In this document: piece by piece, positions 1-33,095 of the stretch
Position numbering within the stretch: the first letter of the stretch is position 1
Layout: the number at the start of each line of letters is the position of its first letter
From: Bacteroidota bacterium
Lineage (GTDB): Bacteria > Bacteroidota > Bacteroidia > Chitinophagales > LD1
Assembly (NCBI GenBank): GCA_025963485.1
Contig: JAOQAO010000066.1
Span: 1 to 33,675, forward strand
Length of the DNA: 33,675 bases
Direction of reading: 5' to 3'
Notes under the pieces: model-generated
Told to the model about the DNA's origin: nothing
The model's database searches: none
What the model saw: only the letters and a program-made list of their open reading frames with translations
Made by a program: the position numbers and the translations under genes

Positions 1-252
1 TCTAAAGGTCAGCATACCTTTACAGCTGCTTAGGGAGGAATCGGCTCCCATCCCTTTCTCTTTTCATCTTTGATAAAATTCTGACTTTTTGCCTGATTTC
101 TATATCCAAAGCAAACATACGAGGGAGTTTGAGGACGGGCCAGCAGCTCGGCTAGCTCACTTATCCATGTTGGAATTCAATCCACCCGCTTGCTGGAAAG
201 CAGACTCGTAATTTATTTTCAGCTACTTCCTTTTTGCCGTACTTTTTTCAGG
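1..252. other. 5' flank without a recognisable gene
   Basis: No reading frame here looks like a gene. The plus-strand frames entering from the left edge stop early, by about position 33 in frame 1 and about 114 in frame 2. A small hairpin (GGGAG, 7-nt loop, CTCCC, at 33-49) followed by a pyrimidine-rich stretch could be the weak terminator of an upstream plus-strand gene, but this is not convincing. The promoter of the first gene lies just downstream. Confidence 0.4.
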
Positions 253-260
253 TAGTTTTG
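253..260 (+). promoter_or_regulatory. -7 promoter motif of the 289 gene
   Basis: TAGTTTTG fits the Bacteroidota -7 consensus TAnnTTTG and sits 28 nt before the ATG at 289. A TTG at 234-236 could be the -33 element, although the 16-nt spacing is a little short for this class. Transcription would start near 265-268. Confidence 0.45.
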
Positions 261-288: not shown

Positions 289-1335
289 ATGTTGCGGGCC
301 TCTCTGATCGCCTTTTGTGCTTTCGTCCTGATGTGTACCTCCTGCAGGCACCACGGCCATAGGTATGTCACCATGGGCTTTTATCATTGGAAAACAGCAG
401 TCAACCTCACAACAGAGGACCACACCATGCTGAAGGAAACCAGCTGCAAAAAAATGTACGTCAATTTCTTTGACGTGGTGCCAAATGCTGACGGGCATTT
501 CGACTATCCCGCAGTGCCCGGCTCTCAGACGGCAAATCTGAATGCACTCCCTCACGGTATGGAGATAATTCCCGTGATTTATATTACCAACGAAGCTATG
601 AAAGCCATGGATTCATCTACCATCCCGCTCATAGCGGACAAGATCCATCATAAGGTCGCTCGTTTCGTCACCGCCAGTGGTATCGATAGCATTCATGAAC
701 TCCAGATCGACTGCGACTGGACCAATAGCACACGGGACAAATACTTCTACCTGCTTTCCCAGATCAAGCAGCATTCGCATATACCTATCCTTTCTGCTAC
801 CATCAGGCTTTACCAGTACAAGTACTTCAAAAAAGCGGGTGTGCCTCCGGTAGATAGAGGTACCCTCATGTTCTATCACATGAACTCCGTGCGCGACATA
901 GAGTCCAAAGAGCTGATACTCGACGTGGCAGAAGGCAAAAAATATCTGGACGGCGAGCCGTATCCGCTACGATTGGATTATGCATTGCCCTTATTCTCCG
1001 AGATGCTGGTGGGTGATGAACGGCATGGTGTTAAATTTTATTCTCCTAAAACATTTGCCAAACTGATGGAGGACACAGCACTGTCCAGGATCGACTCTCT
1101 GCCCGGCCGGTATAAAGTTGTAAAGGACACACATATCGGCGATGAGTATCTCGGCACATGGGATAAGGTCCGGATGGAGACGGTCAAACTGGCCGACCTG
1201 CAGCAGGCTGCCGACCTGCTGAGTGCGCGGGCCAATAGTGATACTTTCAGTGTTATCTTTTTTCATCTCGACAGAGATGCCAATAGCTCATTCACCACCC
1301 ATGAAGTCAAGGATATTATTCACCGGTTTGATTAG
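289..1335 (+). CDS. Hypothetical lipoprotein, possible TIM-barrel (DUF3142-like)
   Basis: The 348-residue protein opens with a lipoprotein signal (hydrophobic residues 4-16, candidate lipidated Cys19 in the context CTSC), so it is probably anchored in the periplasm or outer membrane. The body alternates strands and helices with segments such as YVNFFDV, EIIPVIYI, LQIDCDW, LSATIRLYQY and GTLMFYHM. This resembles the barrel strands of glycosidase-like TIM barrels, and the pattern recalls the uncharacterised DUF3142 family. That resemblance is from memory and is not proof. No catalytic pair can be assigned safely; the Asp residues of the LQIDCDW strand are the likeliest active-site positions. 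The 3' end overlaps the next gene by 35 nt, so the two are probably translated together. A promoter motif lies at 253-260. Confidence 0.7.
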   Translation: MLRASLIAFCAFVLMCTSCRHHGHRYVTMGFYHWKTAVNLTTEDHTMLKETSCKKMYVNFFDVVPNADGHFDYPAVPGSQTANLNALPHGMEIIPVIYITNEAMKAMDSSTIPLIADKIHHKVARFVTASGIDSIHELQIDCDWTNSTRDKYFYLLSQIKQHSHIPILSATIRLYQYKYFKKAGVPPVDRGTLMFYHMNSVRDIESKELILDVAEGKKYLDGEPYPLRLDYALPLFSEMLVGDERHGVKFYSPKTFAKLMEDTALSRIDSLPGRYKVVKDTHIGDEYLGTWDKVRMETVKLADLQQAADLLSARANSDTFSVIFFHLDRDANSSFTTHEVKDIIHRFD

Positions 1336-3703
1336 CATCATTCTGCTATTCTACTATACGACCGACACCCGCGCCTGTTTCCCATCTCCACTGGAGGGTA
1401 CAGAGTGTCGCTTTGGTCTCTTTGTGCCATATACCACTCACATGCGCACCATGGACGGCATGTACTTCTCGTTTTTCAATATGAAAGACGTGGACAATGC
1501 CAAAGGCGTAGAGGCTGATCGCCAAATCAACGTCGATGAGTGGTATGCCTATACGCATCACCGGATTGACAAAAAATCCATTTACACGTTGCTTTACAAT
1601 ACTGACCCCGTAGCTTTTCTGGGTGCTGCGGACCACGACACTTCTTTCACCAATGTGTATCACAATGCCTTCTTCCGCTATCTCATCCGTCCGGAAAATA
1701 AAAAGCTCCTCGACTACATGGCTATCGCCAAGCATGGCGAATTCTTTACACACGCCGACCCTGTCGATCCCTGGGATAATGACTTCAATAAGCCCAAACC
1801 CATCAATAGTCTCCATGATCCGATCACAGCAGCCCTCGCTGATTCAGGCATGGATGCTTTCCTGCGGGCCAGGTACTTGTATCTGGATATTCGCTATAGC
1901 TACTATTATCCTCCGTACGAGAGGGACACGATACTTTACGGTTTTTCCCAAGTGGATGAAGAGTATACGGAGCTGCAGCGGTTACCCATCAAAACTGTAG
2001 TAAAAGGCTGGGCGGCATACTTCAACGCGCTCTATATATCGATGCTGGGAGATACGGCACGTGGCAATTATCTCCTGGCGCAAGCCTTCAATATGTCTAA
2101 CGACAAGAAGTCCCCCATATTCAGGCATTTCTCCGTGGACCTGCTGGGCCAGTCATCCCGCTATGTGCAGAATAACAGTGAGCTCGCCAATCTCTATGTG
2201 CTGGCTGCTATGCACAGGGCAGGAGACGCGATCCCTCATATAGAAAAGATATACCACCTCGATCCCTCCAATCAGAATCTCAGCTTTCTCATGACACGCG
2301 AGATAGCCAAGCTCGAGGACAGGATGTGCACTCCGAAATACACTGGCATCGATGCTCAGATCGGCTATGGCTATCCGCGATATCGCTATGAACCCTTCAA
2401 CTATACTACCAATGACCATGCACATATGGAGAAATGGAAAGCTTTCCTGAAAACTGCGCTGGCTGACTCTGTTCCTAAGGATAAATTTTTCTTCAACCTC
2501 TGTATGGCGCATACCCTCCTCATCGATGAGAAGCCCGATGAGGCCAGGACATACCTGACAGAAGCGAAAAACTATACACCTTCTGACCGGGAGCTGGTTT
2601 ATCAGTACAGGCTTACTGATCTCGCAGTGTTTATCTCTCAGGCTACGGTACTGGATACTAAATTTGAAAATGAAACAGTCGCCGCCTTCCGCTGGCTCGA
2701 TCGCAATAGAGATCATTTCGAGAATGCAGATCTCGCTCTCCGCCAGATTCACCTCTTACTGTCATATAGATATGAGAAGACCGGAAATATCCCCCGAGCT
2801 ATTCTCGTCCGCGCTGGTTACAATGGCTATTCACAATACAACACTGTTGCGACAGGCTATTACTTTGATCTTGACACCTCCCTGTATCTCTACATACAGG
2901 AGCGTGCGACAGGCGCCGACGCAGAGGCTTTTATAAAAACAGTAAAGGGAAAAACAAAAACCCCCTTCGAGAAATATTATGCAGATGTGGTCGCCGCTGA
3001 TACAGCCGAATGCAGCGCAGCCTTCGATGCTGCGGGTTCCAACTATCTCAGGGAGGCAGATTGGGTATCTGCATTGCGTATGTTTTCGCGGATACCAGAC
3101 AGCTATTGGGCTGACGATTATCGTTCTAATAAGATGCTTACCTATCTCAATGCCGACCCCTTCGTTGCCCACCCTTTTGACAACCACGCTCTTTCTCATT
3201 CGATGGACAGCACAAAACGCTATAGCAAAAAAGCATTTACCCGCCATCTCGTCAAACTGCTCACCAATGACATAAATACCCCCGACAGCCTTCTCAAAAT
3301 AGCCGATGCCATGTACAATATGACCTACTTTGGCAACTCGTGGATACTGGTACGCAACTCATGGAGTGCTTTTGATAATGTGTTTGGCAGAAATGAGTGG
3401 GGCGGAAGCAATATATTATCACCCAGATACTATGACTATTATGCCTGTCGCCGTGCCCGGCAATGGTACCAGCGCGCTTACGATACCAGTCAAAACAAAG
3501 AGATCAAAGCAAAGGCAATGCTCATGATGGCCCAGTGTGACAAAAATTTCTCCTACCTGCTATCTGCCGGCAAAAAACCTGGTAGCAAAGCCCTCTTTGA
3601 CCGTTTCGCCAAAAACTACGCAGATACACGCTATTATGCGGATCTCGTCAGCACCTGCGATATATCCGATGTCAAAAAGCAATTTTTCTATTTCACACCT
3701 TAA
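1301..3703 (+). CDS. Large exported helical-repeat protein, unknown function
   Basis: The open frame extends back to 1223, but ATG 1301 is the better start because it begins a clean Sec signal peptide (MKSRILFTGLIS..., cleavage after about TRA, residue 25) and trims the overlap with the upstream gene to 35 nt. The mature protein of about 775 residues is rich in Tyr, Asp and Ala. It contains many helix pairs with alternating aromatic and Ala positions, such as the stretches with NLYVLAAMHRAGDAIPHIEK and AYFNALYISMLGDTARGNYL, which suggests a TPR-like solenoid. No enzymatic motif, TonB box or membrane segment is visible. A lipoprotein of unknown function lies directly upstream and overlaps it, so the two probably act together at the cell envelope. 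I do not recognise the family. Confidence 0.75.
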   Translation: MKSRILFTGLISIILLFYYTTDTRACFPSPLEGTECRFGLFVPYTTHMRTMDGMYFSFFNMKDVDNAKGVEADRQINVDEWYAYTHHRIDKKSIYTLLYNTDPVAFLGAADHDTSFTNVYHNAFFRYLIRPENKKLLDYMAIAKHGEFFTHADPVDPWDNDFNKPKPINSLHDPITAALADSGMDAFLRARYLYLDIRYSYYYPPYERDTILYGFSQVDEEYTELQRLPIKTVVKGWAAYFNALYISMLGDTARGNYLLAQAFNMSNDKKSPIFRHFSVDLLGQSSRYVQNNSELANLYVLAAMHRAGDAIPHIEKIYHLDPSNQNLSFLMTREIAKLEDRMCTPKYTGIDAQIGYGYPRYRYEPFNYTTNDHAHMEKWKAFLKTALADSVPKDKFFFNLCMAHTLLIDEKPDEARTYLTEAKNYTPSDRELVYQYRLTDLAVFISQATVLDTKFENETVAAFRWLDRNRDHFENADLALRQIHLLLSYRYEKTGNIPRAILVRAGYNGYSQYNTVATGYYFDLDTSLYLYIQERATGADAEAFIKTVKGKTKTPFEKYYADVVAADTAECSAAFDAAGSNYLREADWVSALRMFSRIPDSYWADDYRSNKMLTYLNADPFVAHPFDNHALSHSMDSTKRYSKKAFTRHLVKLLTNDINTPDSLLKIADAMYNMTYFGNSWILVRNSWSAFDNVFGRNEWGGSNILSPRYYDYYACRRARQWYQRAYDTSQNKEIKAKAMLMMAQCDKNFSYLLSAGKKPGSKALFDRFAKNYADTRYYADLVSTCDISDVKKQFFYFTP

Positions 3704-13763: not shown

Positions 13764-15191
13764 CTACAGCGACTTCAAAAAAGCGATCAATGCATCCCGA
13801 TCCGCCTTACCCAAATGGCTCACATAGTCCTTTGCCTGAAAGGCCTCACCTCCGTGCCACATGATAGCCTCGATAAGCGTACGTGCACGGCCGTCATTGA
13901 GGAAGTGTGCAGGATAGCTCACGCGTTCATAGAGTCCCACACCCCACAGCGGCGGCGTGCGCCATTCCTGGCCGGTAGCTTCAAAGTCCGGACGGTTGTC
14001 GGCCAGGTCCGGGCCCATATTGTGTAGCAGTAGGTCGGTGTATGGATGGATCCTTTGATTGGAAATAACCGGAAAAGCCACATCCGTCGCGGTCGTCATC
14101 GTTTCCACATGGCAGCGTATACATTTCGCCTGCGTAAATATTTTTTTACCCTGTACTACCTGCGCCTCTGTCACATCCCTGCGTGCAGGCACCGCGAGCG
14201 TATGTATATAGAAATCCAAAGCAGTCAATATGCTGTCCGGCATTTCGTTTTCATCATTTAGTCCGTCGTACTGCGGTTGGCCGAAGCTCGTTTCCACAGG
14301 TTGTATCCTCGTGGTCACACCCATGTCTGCACTCGCAGCGCCTGCTATTTGGTTTATGATGGTCGGCACACTTGCCTTCCAGCCGAACCTTCCGAGCATC
14401 GTAGTTTGCGATACGGGGTCCCATGCATAGTTGGGCTTGCCGCTGATACCATCGCCATCTGCATCATTAGGGTCGGAGTTAGCGAGGATCGCACTTTCAG
14501 GTATACTCTCCAGCAGCCCAAGTCCGAAGACTGGCAGCGGCACTCTCGCAGACAGCATATAGCCTCCCGGTAGTGGCGCGTATAGACTGCTTAGAGAATA
14601 CGTTGGCCTCCGCAGTTCATATGTTTCGCCGTCGGGGAAAGAATACGTTTGATAAGAATACGTGATGTCGACCTTTGCCTCCGGCAGTTTGCCCAACGTT
14701 GCTTTATCCTCTATCTGTAGCCCATATCCCGGCACTGGCACAGGGCCGCCGTGAGAGTCGATGCCCGGCATACTGATACGCATCAGCAGCGATGAGTGCG
14801 CATCGCCTGCGGTAGGTACGCCATTGCCATCATTATGATGGCAGCCAGAGCATGAGACATTATTATACAAAGGCCCCAGTCCACTATTGACAGGAGCAGG
14901 TGCGGTGACGAAGGTCGCATCAAATTTGCTGTCACCCAGGTCATGCAGTTGTGACTCCCCGGCATCCAAGCCTGGATACGCATTGGCAAAGGCATGAGAG
15001 GTGGCGTCAAAGACCGTATTTTGCCCGCCACTCAGCCGCTCGTCATATCCCGAAGCGGGAAACGGCTCCGGCTTCCTGCACATAGACAATAAGAACAGCA
15101 CCCCAAACGATACCACGATCGCAAGTGTCCTGTTCCTATATGTCTTTAGTTTTAGCATGGTGTCTATAGCGCCTTTGTATTTCATTTTCAA
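13764..15191 (-). CDS. Di-heme oxidoreductase (DHOR/DUF1111), c-type cytochrome
   Basis: This is a periplasmic lipoprotein-like di-heme protein, probably moving electrons for metal or peroxide chemistry. Two heme c sites are visible, CSGCH (114-118) and CIRCH (357-361). The family signature TPPLWGVGLYE comes near the C-terminus after MGPDLADNRPDF. A DPNDADGDGISGK loop (240-252) looks like a calcium site. The 475-residue length fits the DHOR (thiol oxidoreductase-like, DUF1111) family. The N-terminus has a hydrophobic signal ending LLSMC (Cys38 if started at 15191). ATG 15158 is an alternative start that leaves a more compact signal. It follows the imelysin gene by 29 nt, a pairing known from other bacteria. 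No CcmF/H-type maturation gene is nearby. Confidence 0.88.
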   Translation of the reverse strand: MKMKYKGAIDTMLKLKTYRNRTLAIVVSFGVLFLLSMCRKPEPFPASGYDERLSGGQNTVFDATSHAFANAYPGLDAGESQLHDLGDSKFDATFVTAPAPVNSGLGPLYNNVSCSGCHHNDGNGVPTAGDAHSSLLMRISMPGIDSHGGPVPVPGYGLQIEDKATLGKLPEAKVDITYSYQTYSFPDGETYELRRPTYSLSSLYAPLPGGYMLSARVPLPVFGLGLLESIPESAILANSDPNDADGDGISGKPNYAWDPVSQTTMLGRFGWKASVPTIINQIAGAASADMGVTTRIQPVETSFGQPQYDGLNDENEMPDSILTALDFYIHTLAVPARRDVTEAQVVQGKKIFTQAKCIRCHVETMTTATDVAFPVISNQRIHPYTDLLLHNMGPDLADNRPDFEATGQEWRTPPLWGVGLYERVSYPAHFLNDGRARTLIEAIMWHGGEAFQAKDYVSHLGKADRDALIAFLKSL

Positions 15192-15220
15192 ATTAGCACA
15201 TCAGCACATTTTCAAATTGA

Positions 15221-16291
15221 TTAATCAGTTATATTCTGCTGTATAAATGGTGTCAGTTCATCATCCAGTATATCCTTCAGGTCATTGATCGCCTGTTGTA
15301 CTGCTATGATCTGCGTACGTTGTGTATAGATGGCTATTTCATAGTTCACATTGATCGTACCGAAAGCAGCCACCGCAGCATTTATCTTGCTGGTGATCCT
15401 GTTGTCCAGTGAAGTATTCTTCTGAGCGATGAGATTATGCAGACTTGCTCCTGTAGTACCATTGTATTGGCAGGTGTATGCGTTGAGCACACCTTTGATG
15501 TTATTGGTGAAATCCGTCGTAGAGTTGTGCGAGAAACTCGACTCGTCCAGTGTAGAATCCGGTCCGCCCGATGCATTCAGGGGCTCTTCCATTTTACCGT
15601 TGGCGACCTCATCGCAAATGCCCGACATAGCCGTCGTGATAGCTACGAAAGCTGCCTTCTTTGTGGTAAAGCGCACGCTGCCCGATCCCGCTGTGGTGAC
15701 CTGTGCTGTGAAGTTGCCCTGTGCCGGGTCCCAGCTATTGCGTAGCGCAGTAGTTGTATTGTACAGGCTTTGCGTGAGCGACGCGAGATATAGTTTCTGG
15801 CGGGGAGTGACCTGCGCAGCGGTCTTAGTGCCGCCTACACCAAATATCACATACTCTATAGCATGAAAACCTTTCAATGATTCAGGCAGCGCATCTATGT
15901 CTGATACGGTCAGTGCATTGCTGCTTGCCAGCAGTGAGTCCAATTGTGTTTTGTCGAGCGGCCATGTGTCCATAGACGGATCATAGTTGTCATCCTCTAC
16001 CGGCCCAAAGAGATACCCTTCACAGCTTTCCCATGCAGCGCGCGTAGTGCGCCATGCGCTTTGCGCCGTTGCGAGATTGGCATCCGTCGCATTGCTATTA
16101 AATGCCACTACTGCAGTGTTGAGGTCGTTTGCTTTCGATTGTATATCCTGATAGTTTGGATTGGCCAGCTTTCCGGCAAAGTCGGTCAGCACTTGCTGCT
16201 CAGTGACAATAGTCGCCGTAGTATCCGGCTTCTTGCAGCCTGCTATGGCCATTATAGTGAGTGAGAGAGAGATGATAAATGCTTTTTTCAT
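15221..16291 (-). CDS. Imelysin-family lipoprotein (iron-regulated)
   Basis: Imelysins are periplasmic or outer-membrane helical-bundle proteins linked to iron uptake (IrpA, ICMP and EfeO-like). The 356-residue protein has a lipoprotein signal with lipobox AIAGC (Cys19). It carries the defining GxHxxE motif as GFHAIE (Gly141, His143, Glu146), and a conserved WxxxRxxWE-type region at AWRTTRAAWESCEGYLFGPV. Despite the family's origin in a reported peptidase, most members lack demonstrated protease activity and are thought to bind iron or heme. The gene heads the imelysin-DHOR pair. The 235 nt upstream, towards the 71-aa gene, hold no exact -7 motif on this strand, so it may be read from the operon promoter at 18940-18969. 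Confidence 0.92.
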   Translation of the reverse strand: MKKAFIISLSLTIMAIAGCKKPDTTATIVTEQQVLTDFAGKLANPNYQDIQSKANDLNTAVVAFNSNATDANLATAQSAWRTTRAAWESCEGYLFGPVEDDNYDPSMDTWPLDKTQLDSLLASSNALTVSDIDALPESLKGFHAIEYVIFGVGGTKTAAQVTPRQKLYLASLTQSLYNTTTALRNSWDPAQGNFTAQVTTAGSGSVRFTTKKAAFVAITTAMSGICDEVANGKMEEPLNASGGPDSTLDESSFSHNSTTDFTNNIKGVLNAYTCQYNGTTGASLHNLIAQKNTSLDNRITSKINAAVAAFGTINVNYEIAIYTQRTQIIAVQQAINDLKDILDDELTPFIQQNITD

Positions 16292-17683: not shown

Positions 17684-18907
17684 TCAGAAGCTATATCCTA
17701 CGCCGAGGTTTAAGAAAATATTATTTTGCTGGTATGGCAGCGCTACAGGGCTTGGATTGAAGACGAGCGCAGGATTCTGTGCTCCCGTATGCTGAAATCT
17801 CACATCTGTTTTGATGATCACATTTTTGATAGGCAGGTAGCTCAGGCCGGTCACGATATGCTGTTGGTCCAGTGTACCATCTATGACACCATTGTCTGGG
17901 ATCACAACATTCATATTCAGCTTCTCATACCTGACGAATACCACGAGCTGATGGCCATTAGCTTTTTTGATCTCTGTCAGGATATCATAGCCCACCTCTC
18001 CATACACACCATACTCCGTACTTGGCGTATTGTTCGCAAAAGCCCTGTTGACAGCCGCTGCATCATTTATATGCAGGATGGTACCCATGATCTTTGCGTT
18101 GAATCCTCTGATTCTATACTGCACATCCGCCTCACCTACGATCACCGGTGTACCAAATATCCCGGAAGTCAGTCCCAAGCTATCGGCTTCTTTGGGTGCG
18201 GCACCCACCGTGCCACCATAGTAGCCGCTAATCTGTGCTTTGAAGTTTCCCTTATTGATCTGTAGTGCCGCAGCGATAGCCATATTATTAAAGGTCGCAT
18301 GCCTGCCCTCAAACCGTCCTTCCCTGATGCCGCTTCCATGCTCGAAGGCAGAAGCATTCAATCCGTTTATCACTGCCAGTGACCAGGTCAGCGGAAATTT
18401 CTTCAGGCTGCCATAATATCCGACACCAAGTTCTCTCCACGTAGAGGGTATGATATTGGTCTCTACCTGTGTCCTTTCATTTCCATTAAAACTTGTCGGC
18501 AAGTGGTTCTCATTTAATATACCGATCCTCGGCAGGAAGAGTCCCACCACAAAGTAGTTCCTTGGATTCACATCAAATTTCAGGTAGGCCTGCTCTAGCG
18601 CTATTTCTCCTCCATGTGCGCCGCTGCTATTTACTACTGCGTCTTCTACTTCCAGTTCGCTGAATATGGAGATGTTTTTATTAAACTTATGCCCGATGAA
18701 AAGCACAAAACGTTCGAGGTCGCCCTCCGAGGTTTTTCTGTTAAAATCCCTTTGATAAAAGGCATTACCATAGCCGCCTATGGTAGTTCCTTTGAGAAAG
18801 GCTTTGAAGCCTGATTGCAATGAATCTTCCTTTGTCCCACCAGTTTGCTGGGCTGAAAGGCCAACAGATAAAAGCAGGAATAATCCAATCGTAAACGATC
18901 TTATCAT
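17684..18907 (-). CDS. Outer-membrane beta-barrel (porin O/P-like)
   Basis: The 407-residue protein has a Sec signal (residues 1-19, SVGLSAQ) and then alternating amphipathic strands with aromatic girdles. It ends in GVGYSF, a terminal aromatic typical of Bam-inserted barrels. The segment GGYGNAFYQRDFNRK, together with SELEVEDAVVNS and AYLKFDVNPRNYFVVGLFLPRIG, resembles phosphate-selective porin O/P-type proteins of Bacteroidota. In this operon it would give a substrate, possibly an iron or metal chelate, passage across the outer membrane; that role is inferred from neighbours. It is the first gene of the locus, 11 nt downstream of the nearer Fur-type box. No TonB box is seen. Confidence 0.82.
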   Translation of the reverse strand: MIRSFTIGLFLLLSVGLSAQQTGGTKEDSLQSGFKAFLKGTTIGGYGNAFYQRDFNRKTSEGDLERFVLFIGHKFNKNISIFSELEVEDAVVNSSGAHGGEIALEQAYLKFDVNPRNYFVVGLFLPRIGILNENHLPTSFNGNERTQVETNIIPSTWRELGVGYYGSLKKFPLTWSLAVINGLNASAFEHGSGIREGRFEGRHATFNNMAIAAALQINKGNFKAQISGYYGGTVGAAPKEADSLGLTSGIFGTPVIVGEADVQYRIRGFNAKIMGTILHINDAAAVNRAFANNTPSTEYGVYGEVGYDILTEIKKANGHQLVVFVRYEKLNMNVVIPDNGVIDGTLDQQHIVTGLSYLPIKNVIIKTDVRFQHTGAQNPALVFNPSPVALPYQQNNIFLNLGVGYSF

Positions 18908-28284: not shown

Positions 28285-29811
28285 TCAATGTGTATCCCAC
28301 CATACCTTGGTAGTCAGGTTGTCAGCTGCCTGGACTGAGGAATAACCGCTGGGATTTAACGAAGCCTCACTGTATGGATATTTCATGCGCACGGGCACTC
28401 CGTTACCTTGCAGCTGTGGATCAGCCGTAGCTTGCAGTATACCAAAGTCGAGCCTTCTGTACTCTATCCATCCTTGTATCCCCTGCATATAGAGGGCCAG
28501 CCATTTTTGCTTACCTATAGTATGCTGCCAGTCAGCGTCTGCTGTCGCATATGCCACTGATGGCTGAGACAGATAAGGCGTCGGTGCATCTGCTCCGGTC
28601 CAGAAATTGAACGATGCATTGATACCTGCCAGGTAGTGTGTTTCTGGATCAGAGACGCCGCCCATTCCGCGGGCTGCAGCTTCTGCCAGGATAAACTCTA
28701 CCTGCGCATAGTCCAGGTAGACACCCGGAGAGGTGGCGCTGATTGTAGCATTGCCCTGCTGAGATACGTCACCAAGTGCGGTATTGCCCGCATTAGACGA
28801 GCTCTGGCCATACGGACGCCCTACGAAGGTCCCGGTATTACCAGCTCTGTTAAAATACACTGCCAGGCGGAGAGTATCATTGAGGGTATTCATCACATCT
28901 ACTATAGTATTAGAAGAGCTGAAGTCTCTTCTGCCGGTGATACGGCGGTCATAATAGAGTGGGTTATAGTTAGGCGATCCATCTATGTACTGGAAGAGTG
29001 CATTGTCATCGTTCGACGTGAAGACCCCGCCTGCTACTGCCTCTTGTATCTTGGTAGAGGCCAGGGTAGGAAGGACATCTGCTATACGTATAGCTACGCG
29101 TAGTTTCAGTGAGTTGCCGAACTTTTGCCATTTCATCATATCGCCGTTATAGATCAGGTCGCCCGTCAGGTCTGTTTTAGATACATCTATCATACCTATA
29201 GCAGTATCGAGCCTCGCTAGGAGAGCAGGGTAGATGTCGCTTTGCTTGTCATATTTCGGTTGCGTGTTTTTTATGTCCTTCAAGGCTTCTGAGAATGGGA
29301 TATCGCCCCATGTATCAGTCATATTCTGATAGGTCCATACCTCGAGGATGGTAGCTACTGCTATCTGGTTTTTGAAATATCCTGATCCCGATGCGTTCGC
29401 CTTAGCACTATCAGCTTTGCAGTTATCGATGATAGTTTGCAGTTCCTTCAGTCCTCCCTCCGGGAAAAAGGTATTGCTTTGTGAGTATTGATCAGGCACG
29501 GCACCTGCGTAGAAAGCGTTCCAGTAATCTTTTATGACTGATTCCCTGAATTGGTACTGGCTCTCATCCGTATATTGGTTTTCTGCATAGTATTGTGCCA
29601 GTAGCATACCTACCGAGCCATTCCACCAGCGGTCCCAGGTATTATCCATGAGGCCTTTTTGCGCACCGCTGAGCAGATAGCTGTTTGGTACAGTCTGTGG
29701 ATTATTCGGGTCTGTGTTTAGTTTATCGAATCCCTTTTTGCAAGCGGACAATGCCAACAGCACACCCGCTACACTCAGGATCATGAGACTTTTTATAGTT
29801 ATCTTTTTCAT
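28285..29811 (-). CDS. SusD/RagB-family surface lipoprotein
   Basis: SusD-like lipoproteins sit on the cell surface over their SusC barrel and capture the nutrient. The 508-residue protein has a signal with lipobox ALSAC (Cys24, then KKGFDKLNTDPNNP), the classic SusD start. Helical TPR-like stretches follow, and the sequence fits the SusD-like_2 subgroup (for example AVATILEVWTYQNMTDTWGDIPFSEAL, where NMTDTWGDIPFSEAL is the recognisable part). The C-terminal half has QKWLALYMQGIQGWIEYRR, another family landmark. It is 23 nt downstream of the SusC gene. This subgroup often serves substrates other than starch, and no glycosidase lies in the operon, so the ligand is unknown. Confidence 0.94.
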   Translation of the reverse strand: MKKITIKSLMILSVAGVLLALSACKKGFDKLNTDPNNPQTVPNSYLLSGAQKGLMDNTWDRWWNGSVGMLLAQYYAENQYTDESQYQFRESVIKDYWNAFYAGAVPDQYSQSNTFFPEGGLKELQTIIDNCKADSAKANASGSGYFKNQIAVATILEVWTYQNMTDTWGDIPFSEALKDIKNTQPKYDKQSDIYPALLARLDTAIGMIDVSKTDLTGDLIYNGDMMKWQKFGNSLKLRVAIRIADVLPTLASTKIQEAVAGGVFTSNDDNALFQYIDGSPNYNPLYYDRRITGRRDFSSSNTIVDVMNTLNDTLRLAVYFNRAGNTGTFVGRPYGQSSSNAGNTALGDVSQQGNATISATSPGVYLDYAQVEFILAEAAARGMGGVSDPETHYLAGINASFNFWTGADAPTPYLSQPSVAYATADADWQHTIGKQKWLALYMQGIQGWIEYRRLDFGILQATADPQLQGNGVPVRMKYPYSEASLNPSGYSSVQAADNLTTKVWWDTH

Positions 29812-29834
29812 AATATTAATTGTGTTTGGGATGA

Positions 29835-32800
29835 TTAGAATTTCACTTGTACATTAAAACCCAGGGACCTTTCAGTCGGCTTTGTTCCTCCCTCAAAACC
29901 CTGCACATTACCTGAATTGGTCGCCGCTTCCGGATCTATATTAGGCACGTTCTTTTTGAGGATAGCGATATTACGCGCTATGAAACCGATCGAGATACCG
30001 CGTATAGGTGTATTCTCAAACATCTTCGAAGGCAGTGCATACATCAGCCTTAGTTCCCTGAACTTCACAAACGATGCATCATATATGTTTTGCTTTACCG
30101 CACCGAAATATCCGTTACCAGATCCATTTTGGAAATAGTCTATCGCCGATATACGTACGTCATTCTTGGTACCATCGCTCGTAGGGTTCCCATCTGCATC
30201 TGTACCTGTCTGCTTGACACCTGGCACTATCAGCCCGTTTTCCCTCACACCATTTGCGGCTGTATTGGCCAGGGTACCATCATACGTACCCCACATATTT
30301 GTGATAGAGAAAAGATTGCCACCTTTTTGAAAATCAAAAAGAGCATACAAGGAAAGTCCCTTATAAGAAAGCGTAGTAGACACACCACCGGTAAAGTCTG
30401 GAAGTATGGATCCCAGCGGCTTAACCGCGGCAGTTTGGAGATAGTTGCCATCTGGCCCTACTATCTTATTGCCATGGGCATCATATACGAAGTCCGTACC
30501 TACGATCTGGCCATATGCCATACCAGGGCGCGCTTCCAGTGTTGCCGCAAATGGTGCCGTACCGAGGTTCAGGCTCGTTACCTCATTTCCTCCGGCATCT
30601 TTATACAGTTCCTTTACTATGTTATAATTTTTTGCCCAGTTGAATCCGATGCTCCATTCAAATCCGCTTTTGGTCCTGACCGGAACGAAGGTTGTAGCGA
30701 GTTCCACACCTTGATTTTGCAGTACACCGGCATTGGTATATCTGAATGCATTGCCGGCAGCGCCTGTTACTTCTACAGGGAAGATGTTATCTGCGGTCAC
30801 TGTATGATAGTAAGTTGCATCGATCTTGACCCTGTCCTGGACGAAGCCGACCTCAAGACCGACTTCCCATGAAGTGACCTTCTCAGGTTTGAGGTTTGGA
30901 TTATTAAAAGTATTAGGTATCACATACATAGGCTGGCTGCCATAGCTAGGTCCTACAGCCGGCAGGTTCGATGTCTTGTATGCGGCCGGTTCGTTTTGAG
31001 CTACTGTCCATCCACCGCGTATTTTGCCGAAGCTCAACACTTTTTTATTCTTGATCAGCTCGCTGAATACCCAGCTGCCTGATACAGATGGATAGAAGAA
31101 GCTAACCTTATTGGTTGGAACGGTAGGTGAGTATAAGGTCGATGCCCAGTCATTTCTCATGGTCACGTCTATATATACCATATGTTTGAATCCAAGAGAT
31201 AGGCTACCGAAGACTGAGTTTACCCTTGTTTTGCTCTGGAAGTTGTTTACTGCTACCTTATCCTTTGAGTTCTCCAGTGTATACCATCCTGGTATATTGA
31301 TACCGCCTTGTGTGGCACTGATATTGTCCCTGGTATTGTGGTCGCGCCTGTTCATACCGATCATAGCTGCGATATCAAATACATCGCGGAATGCCTTCTG
31401 CGCATTCAGTGTGCCTTCATAGTTATTTTCCATTATAGCGATCTGCTCGAGGCTGTAGCCCGGTGTACTGCCGCTGGCAGAAGCCGCTCCCACAGCCACT
31501 CTTTCTTCCCTTATTTCATTGTAAAAGTCGGTTGTGAATTTGCCTTTCGCAGTAAGCCATTTTGTAAGTTTCCATCCCAGCTCTGCATTGCCAAAGACGC
31601 GGTCGCGGTGATCATTTTCGTAGTTCTCATATTGTCTCCAGTATGGATTGTCCCAAAAGTATGGACTGTAGGTACCATTGAAATTGTCATTGACGTCAAA
31701 ATTAGGAGCTAGATTCCAGGCACGCTGTGTGCCATCCGGATTCTTATAGTTCCTCAGGTCCTTGACATCCAGTTGGCGCTGCCACCATTGTGTGAAGTTT
31801 GAGAAGATACTATTGTATCCTATCTGAGGCCTCCCCGTACCTTCATTGTGTACATAGGTCGCAGTGATATTTGCAAATATCTTATCTGTGAAATTGTACC
31901 CGCCGTTAAAGCTGATCGTATTTCTTTTCAGGTTTGAGTTTGGTACAGTGCCTTTTTGAGTGAGGTTAGAGAAGGAAGCGCGGAAGCTGCCCTTGTCATT
32001 AGCCCCGTCAAAAGCCACATTTGTATTGGCCATGTAGCCTGTTTCAAAGAAATCCTTTACGTTATTTGGATGAGCTATATATGGAGTAGCTTTACCATAG
32101 GTAGGATCTGTAGGATTATAGCTACCGTATTGCCTTACGAGCCTGCCGTCCAGCCTTGGTCCCCAGCTGGCATCATCCTCCAGGCGCACACGCTGCTGTG
32201 TAGGATCTGCCTCGTCCGGCACGAAAGAAGGGCCATAGCCACCGCCGTATTGATTCTGATATTCTGGCAGGTTATAGACCTGATTAAACATCATGTTCTC
32301 AGTCACAGTGACTCCTATAGGAGATTTGCCTTTTTCTCCCTGTTGTTTATGGCCTTTCTTGGTAGTGATGAGTATCACGCCGTAGATACCCCGGTTGCCA
32401 TAGAGTGCTGTAGCTGGGCCGCCCTTGAGTACGTTGATAGACTCTACATCATCGGCGTTGAGATCTGACACGGCATTGCCATAATCATATCCCTGAGCGC
32501 CACGGTCCACCTCTACAGTAGAGTAGTTCGAGTTATCTACCACGATACCGTCTATGACGAATAGCGGCTGGTTATTGCCGGTCAGTGACTTGATACCGCG
32601 TATAGTGATACGCGATGAGCCGCCTATATTGCTATTGCCGTTGATCTGTACCCCTGCGATCTTACCTGACAGGTTATTGACGAGGTTAGCGTCTTTAGAT
32701 GTATTGATATCATCACCACTGATCTGCTGAGTGGCATATCCGAGTGCTTTCTTTTCACGCTTGATACCTAGTGCCGTCACGACCACATCTTCCAGCAGTT

Positions 32801-33095
32801 TTTCATTTTCTTCCAGTACCACATCGAGCACCAGGCCGGTGATGACTACCGTCTTGGGTTTCATTCCCGTGTATGATACGATCAGGTTTTTAGCATCATC
32901 CGGTACGGATAGGCTGTACTTGCCGTCGATATCGGTCGTAGTGCCGATGGCTGTTTTCTCGACGAGTACGACTGCGCCTATGACAGGCTGTTTGTCCTTG
33001 GCCGACGTCACTACCCCCGTTATAGTCCGTTGACTATAAGCGAAATGGGTGGTAGCAAGCAGCAGGACAAAAACGGAGAGTAGTTTTTGTTTCAT
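29835..33095 (-). CDS. SusC/RagA-family TonB-dependent outer-membrane transporter
   Basis: This is the active outer-membrane importer that works with the SusD protein encoded next to it. It has a Sec signal (1-21, FAYSQ). A carboxypeptidase-regulatory-like domain follows (about 22-95, with ITGVVTSAKDKQPVIGAVV). The SusC linker and TonB-box region DVVVTALGIKREKKALGYAT comes next. The plug spans about 120-240, with ISGKIAGVQI-type and IRGIKSLTGNNQPLFVIDGI elements, and a 22-strand barrel runs to the end (GFNVQVKF, terminal Phe). The 1086-residue length is normal. There is no STN domain, so no direct sigma/anti-sigma signalling is expected. A -7 motif lies at 33142-33149. Confidence 0.95.
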   Translation of the reverse strand: MKQKLLSVFVLLLATTHFAYSQRTITGVVTSAKDKQPVIGAVVLVEKTAIGTTTDIDGKYSLSVPDDAKNLIVSYTGMKPKTVVITGLVLDVVLEENEKLLEDVVVTALGIKREKKALGYATQQISGDDINTSKDANLVNNLSGKIAGVQINGNSNIGGSSRITIRGIKSLTGNNQPLFVIDGIVVDNSNYSTVEVDRGAQGYDYGNAVSDLNADDVESINVLKGGPATALYGNRGIYGVILITTKKGHKQQGEKGKSPIGVTVTENMMFNQVYNLPEYQNQYGGGYGPSFVPDEADPTQQRVRLEDDASWGPRLDGRLVRQYGSYNPTDPTYGKATPYIAHPNNVKDFFETGYMANTNVAFDGANDKGSFRASFSNLTQKGTVPNSNLKRNTISFNGGYNFTDKIFANITATYVHNEGTGRPQIGYNSIFSNFTQWWQRQLDVKDLRNYKNPDGTQRAWNLAPNFDVNDNFNGTYSPYFWDNPYWRQYENYENDHRDRVFGNAELGWKLTKWLTAKGKFTTDFYNEIREERVAVGAASASGSTPGYSLEQIAIMENNYEGTLNAQKAFRDVFDIAAMIGMNRRDHNTRDNISATQGGINIPGWYTLENSKDKVAVNNFQSKTRVNSVFGSLSLGFKHMVYIDVTMRNDWASTLYSPTVPTNKVSFFYPSVSGSWVFSELIKNKKVLSFGKIRGGWTVAQNEPAAYKTSNLPAVGPSYGSQPMYVIPNTFNNPNLKPEKVTSWEVGLEVGFVQDRVKIDATYYHTVTADNIFPVEVTGAAGNAFRYTNAGVLQNQGVELATTFVPVRTKSGFEWSIGFNWAKNYNIVKELYKDAGGNEVTSLNLGTAPFAATLEARPGMAYGQIVGTDFVYDAHGNKIVGPDGNYLQTAAVKPLGSILPDFTGGVSTTLSYKGLSLYALFDFQKGGNLFSITNMWGTYDGTLANTAANGVRENGLIVPGVKQTGTDADGNPTSDGTKNDVRISAIDYFQNGSGNGYFGAVKQNIYDASFVKFRELRLMYALPSKMFENTPIRGISIGFIARNIAILKKNVPNIDPEAATNSGNVQGFEGGTKPTERSLGFNVQVKF

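What the first reader, a model, noticed from the sequence alone, without database searches (positions are those of the whole stretch)
289..3703. Unrecognised overlapping pair: barrel-like lipoprotein and 800-aa exported solenoid
A lipoprotein with TIM-barrel-like strand pattern overlaps by 35 nt a very large exported helical-repeat protein. Neither matches a function I know. The tight coupling, own promoter motif and envelope targeting of both suggest a two-protein surface or periplasmic machine, perhaps acting on a glycan.
Basis: partly seen in the sequence, partly recalled or inferred. Interest (0 to 1): 0.55.

Follow-up and report, generated by a model that had tools for sequence, protein, structure and literature searches.

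The report
Obligate GH18-barrel and TPR-solenoid envelope pair
Two unnamed neighbouring genes of a Bacteroidota genome encode a chitinase-shaped lipoprotein and a large exported helical scaffold that are nearly always found together, even in genomes where they sit far apart, so they very probably form one unstudied cell-envelope machine that handles a sugar polymer.

Summary
ORF 289-1335 (348 aa) is a lipoprotein; ORF 1301-3703 (800 aa) is an exported helical protein; they overlap by 35 nt. AlphaFold2 gives a confident (beta/alpha)8 barrel for the first (pLDDT 91.6) and an all-helical solenoid for the second (pLDDT 83). The barrel has the GH18 (chitinase) fold: the 50 listed VIA-align rows are all chitinases, chitinase-like proteins or SleL, Z 17.6-19.1. 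Neither window protein reaches a Pfam or NCBIfam cut-off. The pair is tightly tied: among 298 genomes of the order, 104 hold a strong first gene, 102 a strong second, 102 both; copy numbers match in 100 of those 102. In about a third of the 102 no adjacent pair was found, yet both genes are present. Of 13 genomes chosen because the first gene had no partner right beside it, all 13 hold the second gene. The best sequence register, which is weak, puts Thr/Ser at the GH18 catalytic Glu, so the barrel may be a glycan-binding pseudoenzyme; an active enzyme using Asp143 is not excluded. Likely reading: an obligate membrane-anchored complex of a GH18-fold glycan-binding subunit and a TPR-type scaffold. 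My paper searches found no description of it.

The parts
233..260 (+). candidate Bacteroidota promoter: TTTG 233-236, TAGTTTTG 253-260
   Evidence: consensus recalled; weak on its own
289..1335 (+). gene 1: 348-aa GH18-fold lipoprotein
289..345 (+). signal sequence and lipobox of gene 1, Cys19
   Evidence: C19 in 46 of 46 homologues found without the motif pattern, preceded mostly by S/A/G
709..723 (+). end of strand beta4, residues D141-C142-D143-W144-T145, the place of the GH18 motif DxxDxDxE
   Evidence: D141 and D143 46 of 46, C142 and W144 45, residue 145 T in 40 and S in 6; register
994..1182 (+). alpha+beta insertion, residues 236-298, between beta7 and alpha7
   Evidence: secondary structure of the model; same place as the GH18 insertion domain described in PMC12090808 (passages)
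1301..1335 (+). 35-nt overlap of gene 1 end and gene 2 start
   Evidence: overlap of 29-44 nt in 37 of 60 pairs
1301..3703 (+). gene 2: 800-aa exported TPR-like solenoid
1376..1378 (+). codon of Cys26 of gene 2, invariant, right after the signal sequence
   Evidence: 45 of 45 rows of A3
3656..3658 (+). codon of Cys786 of gene 2, invariant
   Evidence: invariant in the 45 rows of A3

Best explanation
The two genes encode the subunits of one obligate cell-envelope complex. Gene 1 is a membrane-anchored lipoprotein whose body is a GH18 (chitinase) barrel with its insertion domain; it most likely binds a GlcNAc-type glycan in the GH18 groove, facing the periplasm, where peptidoglycan or an envelope glycan is the natural ligand. 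In the best-supported register the GH18 proton donor is replaced by Thr/Ser while the two preceding Asp and the beta6 Tyr are kept, so it probably senses or holds the glycan rather than cutting it by the usual GH18 chemistry. Gene 2 is an exported TPR-type solenoid that is never found without gene 1 and serves as its scaffold, clamping the barrel and recruiting or positioning other envelope proteins, as NlpI does for peptidoglycan hydrolases in E. coli. Shown: reading frames, overlap, predicted fold of each, conservation, co-occurrence. Inferred: physical complex, which membrane and which side, glycan ligand, lack of catalysis, scaffold role.
For: Pairing: 102 genomes with both, 2 with gene 1 only, 0 with gene 2 only, of 298, with matching copy numbers in 100 of the 102 ('strong' means the rows I kept, above 100 bits). 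In a phylum-wide sample 12 of 148 genomes have a strong gene 1, the same 12 a strong gene 2, and all 15 gene-1 loci there have gene 2 beside them (compared by hand; at least G000, G045 and G075 are in both samples). Pairing without linkage: about a third of the 102 have no adjacent pair (33 after a correction, 34 as printed), some on one long contig hundreds of kb to megabases apart (G442, G364, G420); and of 13 genomes picked because gene 1 had no partner right beside it (11 with none in the fetched flank, 2 with one about 4.5 kb away), 13 hold gene 2. Congruent trees: distance correlation 0.81 for 60 pairs against at most 0.15 in 2,000 permutations. Fold: VIA Z 19.1 (4wiw_D, 290 aligned, rmsd 4.2), the 50 listed rows all chitinases, chitinase-like proteins or SleL; Foldseek best SleL 4.4e-11. 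Register: GH18 profile position 114 is the catalytic Glu in a calibration fragment, and a family consensus fragment starts with I140 at position 109, hence T145 at 114 if the next five residues align without a gap. Residues kept: D141, D143, M194, Y196 in 46 of 46 homologues. GH18-fold proteins without activity that bind GlcNAc are known (PMC3662789, passages). Scaffold analogy: NlpI (PMC7049810, abstract and outline).
Against: No complex was modelled and no direct contact is shown; the tree correlation has no control gene, so shared species history alone could give much of it. The 298 genomes are related, so the Fisher value overstates. Drafts can break adjacency at contig ends. The register rests on a weak Pfam match of an artificial consensus (E 2.6e-4, 21.2 bits, below the cut-off of 29.6). 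Unrelated families also appeared: on the full-length consensus at E 0.0012-0.027, and DUF3194 at 4.2e-4 on another fragment. Two consensus fragments covering the motif and one covering beta5 to beta7 gave no GH18 match. Profile-profile comparison with eight GH18 domains was not significant. R173 and T171 are almost invariant, which also fits an enzyme. No conserved third gene gives the pathway.
Confidence: 0.45

Rival explanations
1. Gene 1 is an active glycosidase of the GH18 superfamily with Asp143 in place of the catalytic Glu and Asp141 as helper, cutting a GlcNAc-type glycan, perhaps peptidoglycan, and gene 2 activates or targets it.
For: Best Foldseek matches are the spore cortex-lytic enzymes SleL. 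D141, D143, T171, M194, Y196 are in 46 of 46 and R173 in 45 of 46 homologues, which is enzyme-like. In the model strand beta4 ends at C142; in one GH18-fold structure the motif is described as located in strand beta4 (PMC12090808, passages), which would put the Glu near D143.
Against: The Pfam register puts T145, not D143, at the Glu. In another GH18-fold structure the equivalent of the Glu (Val130) lies three residues after the strand (124-127; PMC3662789, passages), which fits T145.
Confidence: 0.35
2. The pair is a nutrient-glycan system of the surface, like a polysaccharide utilization locus.
For: GH18 fold and lipoprotein; Bacteroidota use GH18 enzymes in chitin loci (PMC5127042, passages).
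Against: I recognised by eye no SusC/SusD or sugar-enzyme family among the recurrent neighbours printed (neighbours were not run against Pfam); the window's own SusC/SusD pair is about 25 kb away; few acidic residues after the lipobox; no GH18 match in the window genome.
Confidence: 0.08
3. The two proteins are merely co-transcribed and need not touch each other; they serve one pathway in parallel.
For: Direct contact is not shown; in many genomes the genes are unlinked.
Against: Copy numbers match in 100 of 102 genomes, and order and short overlap are kept across many lineages.
Confidence: 0.12

Closest known systems
GH18 chitinases, SleL and chitinase-like lectins (chi-lectins)
   Same: (beta/alpha)8 barrel, alpha+beta insertion between beta7 and alpha7; Z up to 19.1. 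By eye and recall: Asp-rich end of beta4, Met-x-Tyr on beta6, conserved Pro on beta7
   Different: Sequence below the Pfam cut-off; the motif reads QIDCDW[TS] instead of DxxDxDxE; nearly invariant Arg173 and Thr171 on beta5; obligate TPR-type partner
DUF3142 (PF11340)
   Same: The DUF3142 protein of L147 has the string LQIDFDA where gene 1 has LQIDCDW (compared by eye); 12 of 78 homologues match PF11340 at E up to 1, best 4.9e-4
   Different: No match for the window protein; consensus and fragments stay below the 30-bit cut-off (bits of single homologues not shown); its partners could not be studied
NlpI, adaptor lipoprotein of peptidoglycan hydrolases in E. coli
   Same: Envelope adaptor that binds glycan-active enzymes (PMC7049810, abstract and outline); TPR fold recalled
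   Different: Here the barrel, not the solenoid, clearly carries the lipobox; one dedicated partner rather than several; no sequence relation shown

Membership tests
GH18 superfamily fold | (beta/alpha)8 barrel matching solved GH18 structures over most of the domain | tested here: met
   Z 17.6-19.1 for the 50 listed rows, all chitinases, chitinase-like proteins or SleL; best row covers model residues 24-348
GH18 (Pfam PF00704) | Score above the curated cut-off of 29.6 bits | tested here: not met
   Window protein: none; family consensus 21.2 bits; 1 of 78 homologues matches at E up to 1, with E 0.015
GH18 catalytic family | Motif DxxDxDxE with catalytic Glu | tested here: not met
   Sequence reads QIDCDWT; T in 40 and S in 6 of 46 at the Glu place in the Pfam register, D143 in the other register
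GH18 catalytic family | Hydrolysis of GlcNAc linkages | not testable with these tools
   needs assay
DUF3142 (PF11340) | Score above the curated cut-off of 30 bits | tested here: not met
   none for window protein; 17.0 to 19.7 bits for consensus and fragments
TPR protein | Helical-repeat solenoid | tested here: met
   all-helical model; single TPR models hit up to 11 of 45 homologues, best 7.5e-8
TPR protein | Score above a TPR cut-off in the window protein | tested here: not met
   TPR_6 16.4 bits against 26.3, TPR_14 11.4 against 23.5
Bacterial lipoprotein (gene 1) | Lipobox Cys after a signal sequence | tested here: met
   C19 in 46 of 46; loose lipobox pattern in 52 and strict in 29 of 76
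Bacterial lipoprotein (gene 2) | Lipobox Cys after a signal sequence | tested here: inconclusive
   Cys26 in 45 of 45 but loose lipobox in 20 and strict in 7 of 45

The most novel reading that the evidence does not exclude
An undescribed, obligate two-protein envelope machine of Bacteroidota: a GH18-fold lipoprotein whose active site has been rebuilt around Asp141-x-Asp143, Thr/Ser145, Thr171 and Arg173 works only together with a dedicated giant TPR solenoid, either as a glycan sensor for the cell wall or as a glycosidase with non-GH18 chemistry.
Probability: 0.5. Interest if true: 0.72.

Novelty: new variant of a known kind. Interest (0 to 1): 0.56.

Why it matters
Yet NCBIfam has no model for either family at E up to 0.001 and Pfam knows them only through sub-threshold or generic TPR matches. 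A partnership that survives loss of gene linkage is a strong pointer to an obligate complex, and the GH18 fold gives a ready, testable ligand class.

Tried and rejected
DUF3142 membership: tested with Pfam on the window protein, 78 homologues and consensus fragments; only sub-threshold. A search for DUF3142 in 395 Bacteroidota genomes gave one hit, on a 3.6-kb contig that may be a contaminant, so its neighbours could not be studied. Its weak GH18 match (E 0.24) was not used.

Guilt by association: flanking genes of the 80 loci plus five further regions were clustered (the largest recurrent neighbour family covers 8 loci), and those of 10 genomes with unlinked genes listed. Shared neighbours are lineage-specific by eye; no third component.

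Gene fusion: L083 reads as one 1,151-aa frame, but it differs from its relative L076 (75% identical) by a one-base gap near the junction, so I do not count it as evidence of fusion.

Profile-profile comparison of gene 1 with eight GH18 domains: not significant (probability 0.8%), used only as a hint on the register. Solved-structure sequence search: no GH18 chain for gene 1 at E up to 10 and only weak generic or designed repeat proteins for gene 2. Plasmids: no match for gene 1. Defence systems: no PADLOC match for the two window proteins. A close fold relative of gene 2 was not found: its rows are assorted solenoids with Z up to 9.6, within the level expected for helical repeats.

Rejected as evidence: invariance of E-x-Q-x-DCD-W-T in alignments A2 and A4, because the collection scan used the pattern [EC][IVL]Q[IFL]DCD[WY][TS]. 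I re-measured it on 46 distinct homologues found by profile or plain protein search; the profile itself was built from A4, and at least one species (Edaphocola flava) is in both sets.

Rows dropped before the count: 11 of 133 rows (weak matches and second pieces of one frame), 12 of 134 rows (10 weak, 2 second pieces). Dropping the N-terminal piece in G423 made its pair look 1,055 nt apart; it is adjacent, so 69 rather than 68 genomes have an adjacent pair. The two genomes with 1:2 copies are G209 and G320; in G320 the second gene is in two pieces on two contigs. Only 6 or 3 candidates per genome were scored, so higher copy numbers could be missed. At least three of the 13 genomes (G692, G693, G695) look the same as genomes (G249, G209, G402; identical places), so the two results are not independent.
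Full report
What is there. Gene 1 (289-1335, +) encodes 348 residues and gene 2 (1301-3703, +) 800 residues; the two overlap by 35 nt. Gene 1 has a lipoprotein signal ending at Cys19. Gene 2 starts with a hydrophobic segment followed by Cys26. A Bacteroidota-like promoter box lies upstream (consensus recalled). The window is contig 42 of a 4.5-Mb draft genome. That genome holds a second, diverged copy of the pair on contig 161 (gene 1 37% identical; gene 2 found by profile).

Not in the libraries. Pfam gives nothing for gene 1 and only sub-threshold TPR hits for gene 2. NCBIfam gives no family for 78 gene 1 homologues and none for 45 gene 2 homologues at E up to 0.001. PADLOC gives none for the two window proteins. 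Paper searches for DUF3142, for tetratricopeptide with 'glycoside hydrolase family 18', Bacteroidetes or 'conserved gene pair', and for GH18 with tetratricopeptide, lipoprotein, Bacteroidetes and periplasmic listed no paper on the pair; I saw listings and a few passages, and the families have no name to search for, so this is weak evidence of absence.

Fold of gene 1. AlphaFold2 with 78 sequences gives mean pLDDT 91.6 and pTM 0.89, with eight barrel strands alternating with helices and an alpha+beta insertion at residues 236-298. Foldseek finds 40 solved chains at E up to 0.001, most of them GH18 proteins, best SleL of Bacillus cereus (4.4e-11, TM-score 0.54 by the query). VIA-align lists 50 entries with Z 17.6 to 19.1, all of them chitinases, chitinase-like proteins or SleL. 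The insertion sits between beta7 and alpha7, as described for GH18 proteins with the insertion domain (PMC12090808, passages).

Active site. On 46 distinct homologues found by profile or plain protein search, D141, D143, T171, M194 and Y196 are in all 46, R173, C142 and W144 in 45, E137 and Q139 in 44, and residue 145 is T in 40 and S in 6. A GH18 calibration fragment puts the catalytic Glu at Pfam position 114, and a family consensus fragment starts with I140 at position 109; without a gap this puts D141 and D143 on the two conserved Asp and T145 on the Glu. Two other consensus fragments that hold the motif, and one from beta5 to beta7, gave no GH18 match, and the longest gave a weaker one (E 0.0016). 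The other register, two residues on, would put D143 on the Glu. Published strand limits do not settle it: in one chi-lectin the Glu equivalent lies three residues after strand beta4 (124-127 and Val130; PMC3662789, passages), in another protein the motif is placed in the strand (PMC12090808, passages). In our model the strand ends at C142.

Fold of gene 2. The model is all helical (pLDDT 83). Single TPR models match up to 11 of 45 homologues (best 7.5e-8). Solved-structure matches are assorted solenoids, best Z 9.6. Cys26 and Cys786 are invariant in the 45 aligned rows. Because only 7 of 45 have a strict and 20 a loose lipobox at Cys26, a disulfide between the two is a reasonable guess, not shown.

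The pair travels together. In the 80 loci kept from the genome collection, gene 2 is right downstream (gap under 400 nt or overlap) in 67, one of them as a single frame; about 4.5 kb downstream in 2; and not in the fetched flank in 11. In a phylum-wide sample, 12 of 148 genomes have strong gene 1 and the same 12 strong gene 2, all 15 gene-1 loci adjacent (compared by hand); remaining matches there are weak (G091 for gene 1; G064 and G128 for gene 2). In 298 genomes of the order, 104 have strong gene 1, 102 strong gene 2, 102 both; the two gene-1-only genomes carry a diverged form. Copy numbers are 1:1 in 83, 2:2 in 16, 3:3 in 1 and 1:2 in 2. One search printed 68 genomes with an adjacent pair (within 600 nt) and 34 with both genes but no adjacent pair; correcting G423 gives 69 and 33. 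Some of the 33 may be contig breaks or near neighbours (G312, G446 lie 0.8 and 3.1 kb apart), but in G442, G364 and G420 the genes lie on one contig 0.4 to 3.8 Mb apart. Of 13 genomes chosen because gene 1 had no partner right beside it, 13 hold gene 2. For 60 adjacent pairs the tree distances correlate at 0.81 (2,000 permutations, maximum 0.15), and 37 of 60 overlap by 29-44 nt when the first start codon of each frame is taken. Relatedness inflates these statistics, but unlinked co-retention with matching copy number is hard to explain without mutual need.

Distribution. In the window's own genus and family none of the 29 other genomes in the first sample matched by plain protein search, nor did the 20 listed at 90% completeness or more by profile. 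Yet the window genome has two pairs, so horizontal gain or widespread loss is likely.

No third partner. Clustering the flanks of the 80 loci and five further regions gave only neighbour families shared by at most 8 loci; ten genomes with unlinked genes gave none common to all (by eye).

How it probably works. Shown: the frames, the overlap, the predicted folds, the conservation, the co-occurrence. Inferred: the lipoprotein is anchored facing the periplasm (6 of 76 homologues have two or more acidic residues among the five after the Cys; the surface-export signal is recalled); the barrel binds a GlcNAc-type glycan; the solenoid clamps it and acts as adaptor, by analogy with NlpI (PMC7049810, abstract and outline). 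Whether the barrel cuts its ligand is open; I hold lectin-like slightly likelier than enzyme.

Noticed in passing
window 28285-33095 (-): A SusD-like lipoprotein and TonB-dependent receptor pair (Pfam PF12771, PF00593/PF07715), about 25 kb from the finding.
   Followed up: no
window 13764-16291 (-): A di-haem peroxidase-like protein next to an imelysin (Peptidase_M75).
   Followed up: no
window 17684-18907 (-): A 407-aa ORF without a Pfam match at 1e-5.
   Followed up: no
window, both strands: TAnnTTTG occurs 34 times against 20 expected, 0 of 100 shuffles reaching it, consistent with Bacteroidota promoters.
   Followed up: no
L083 5944-9399: In Sphingobacterium multivorum NCTC11343 the two genes read as one 1,151-aa frame; a one-base difference from a relative near the junction may be an assembly error.
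   Followed up: partly
L006 / L014 (G047) and G204: A diverged gene 1 form (DCDYS in L006) without a detectable gene 2; in L006 it lies next to an oppositely oriented gene whose sequence looks like a helical-repeat sensor kinase (by eye).
   Followed up: partly
L150, L154, L156, L158, L168: In one lineage with unlinked genes, gene 2 sits beside a patatin-like protein (VGLVLSGGGAKGYAHIG in L156, L158, L168) or a similarly sized ORF at that place (L150, L154); name recalled from the motif.
   Followed up: no
L147 1330-1884 (-): A DUF3142 protein (60 bits) on a 3.6-kb contig of a Bacteroidota draft genome, possibly a contaminant, with the string LQIDFDA like gene 1.
   Followed up: partly
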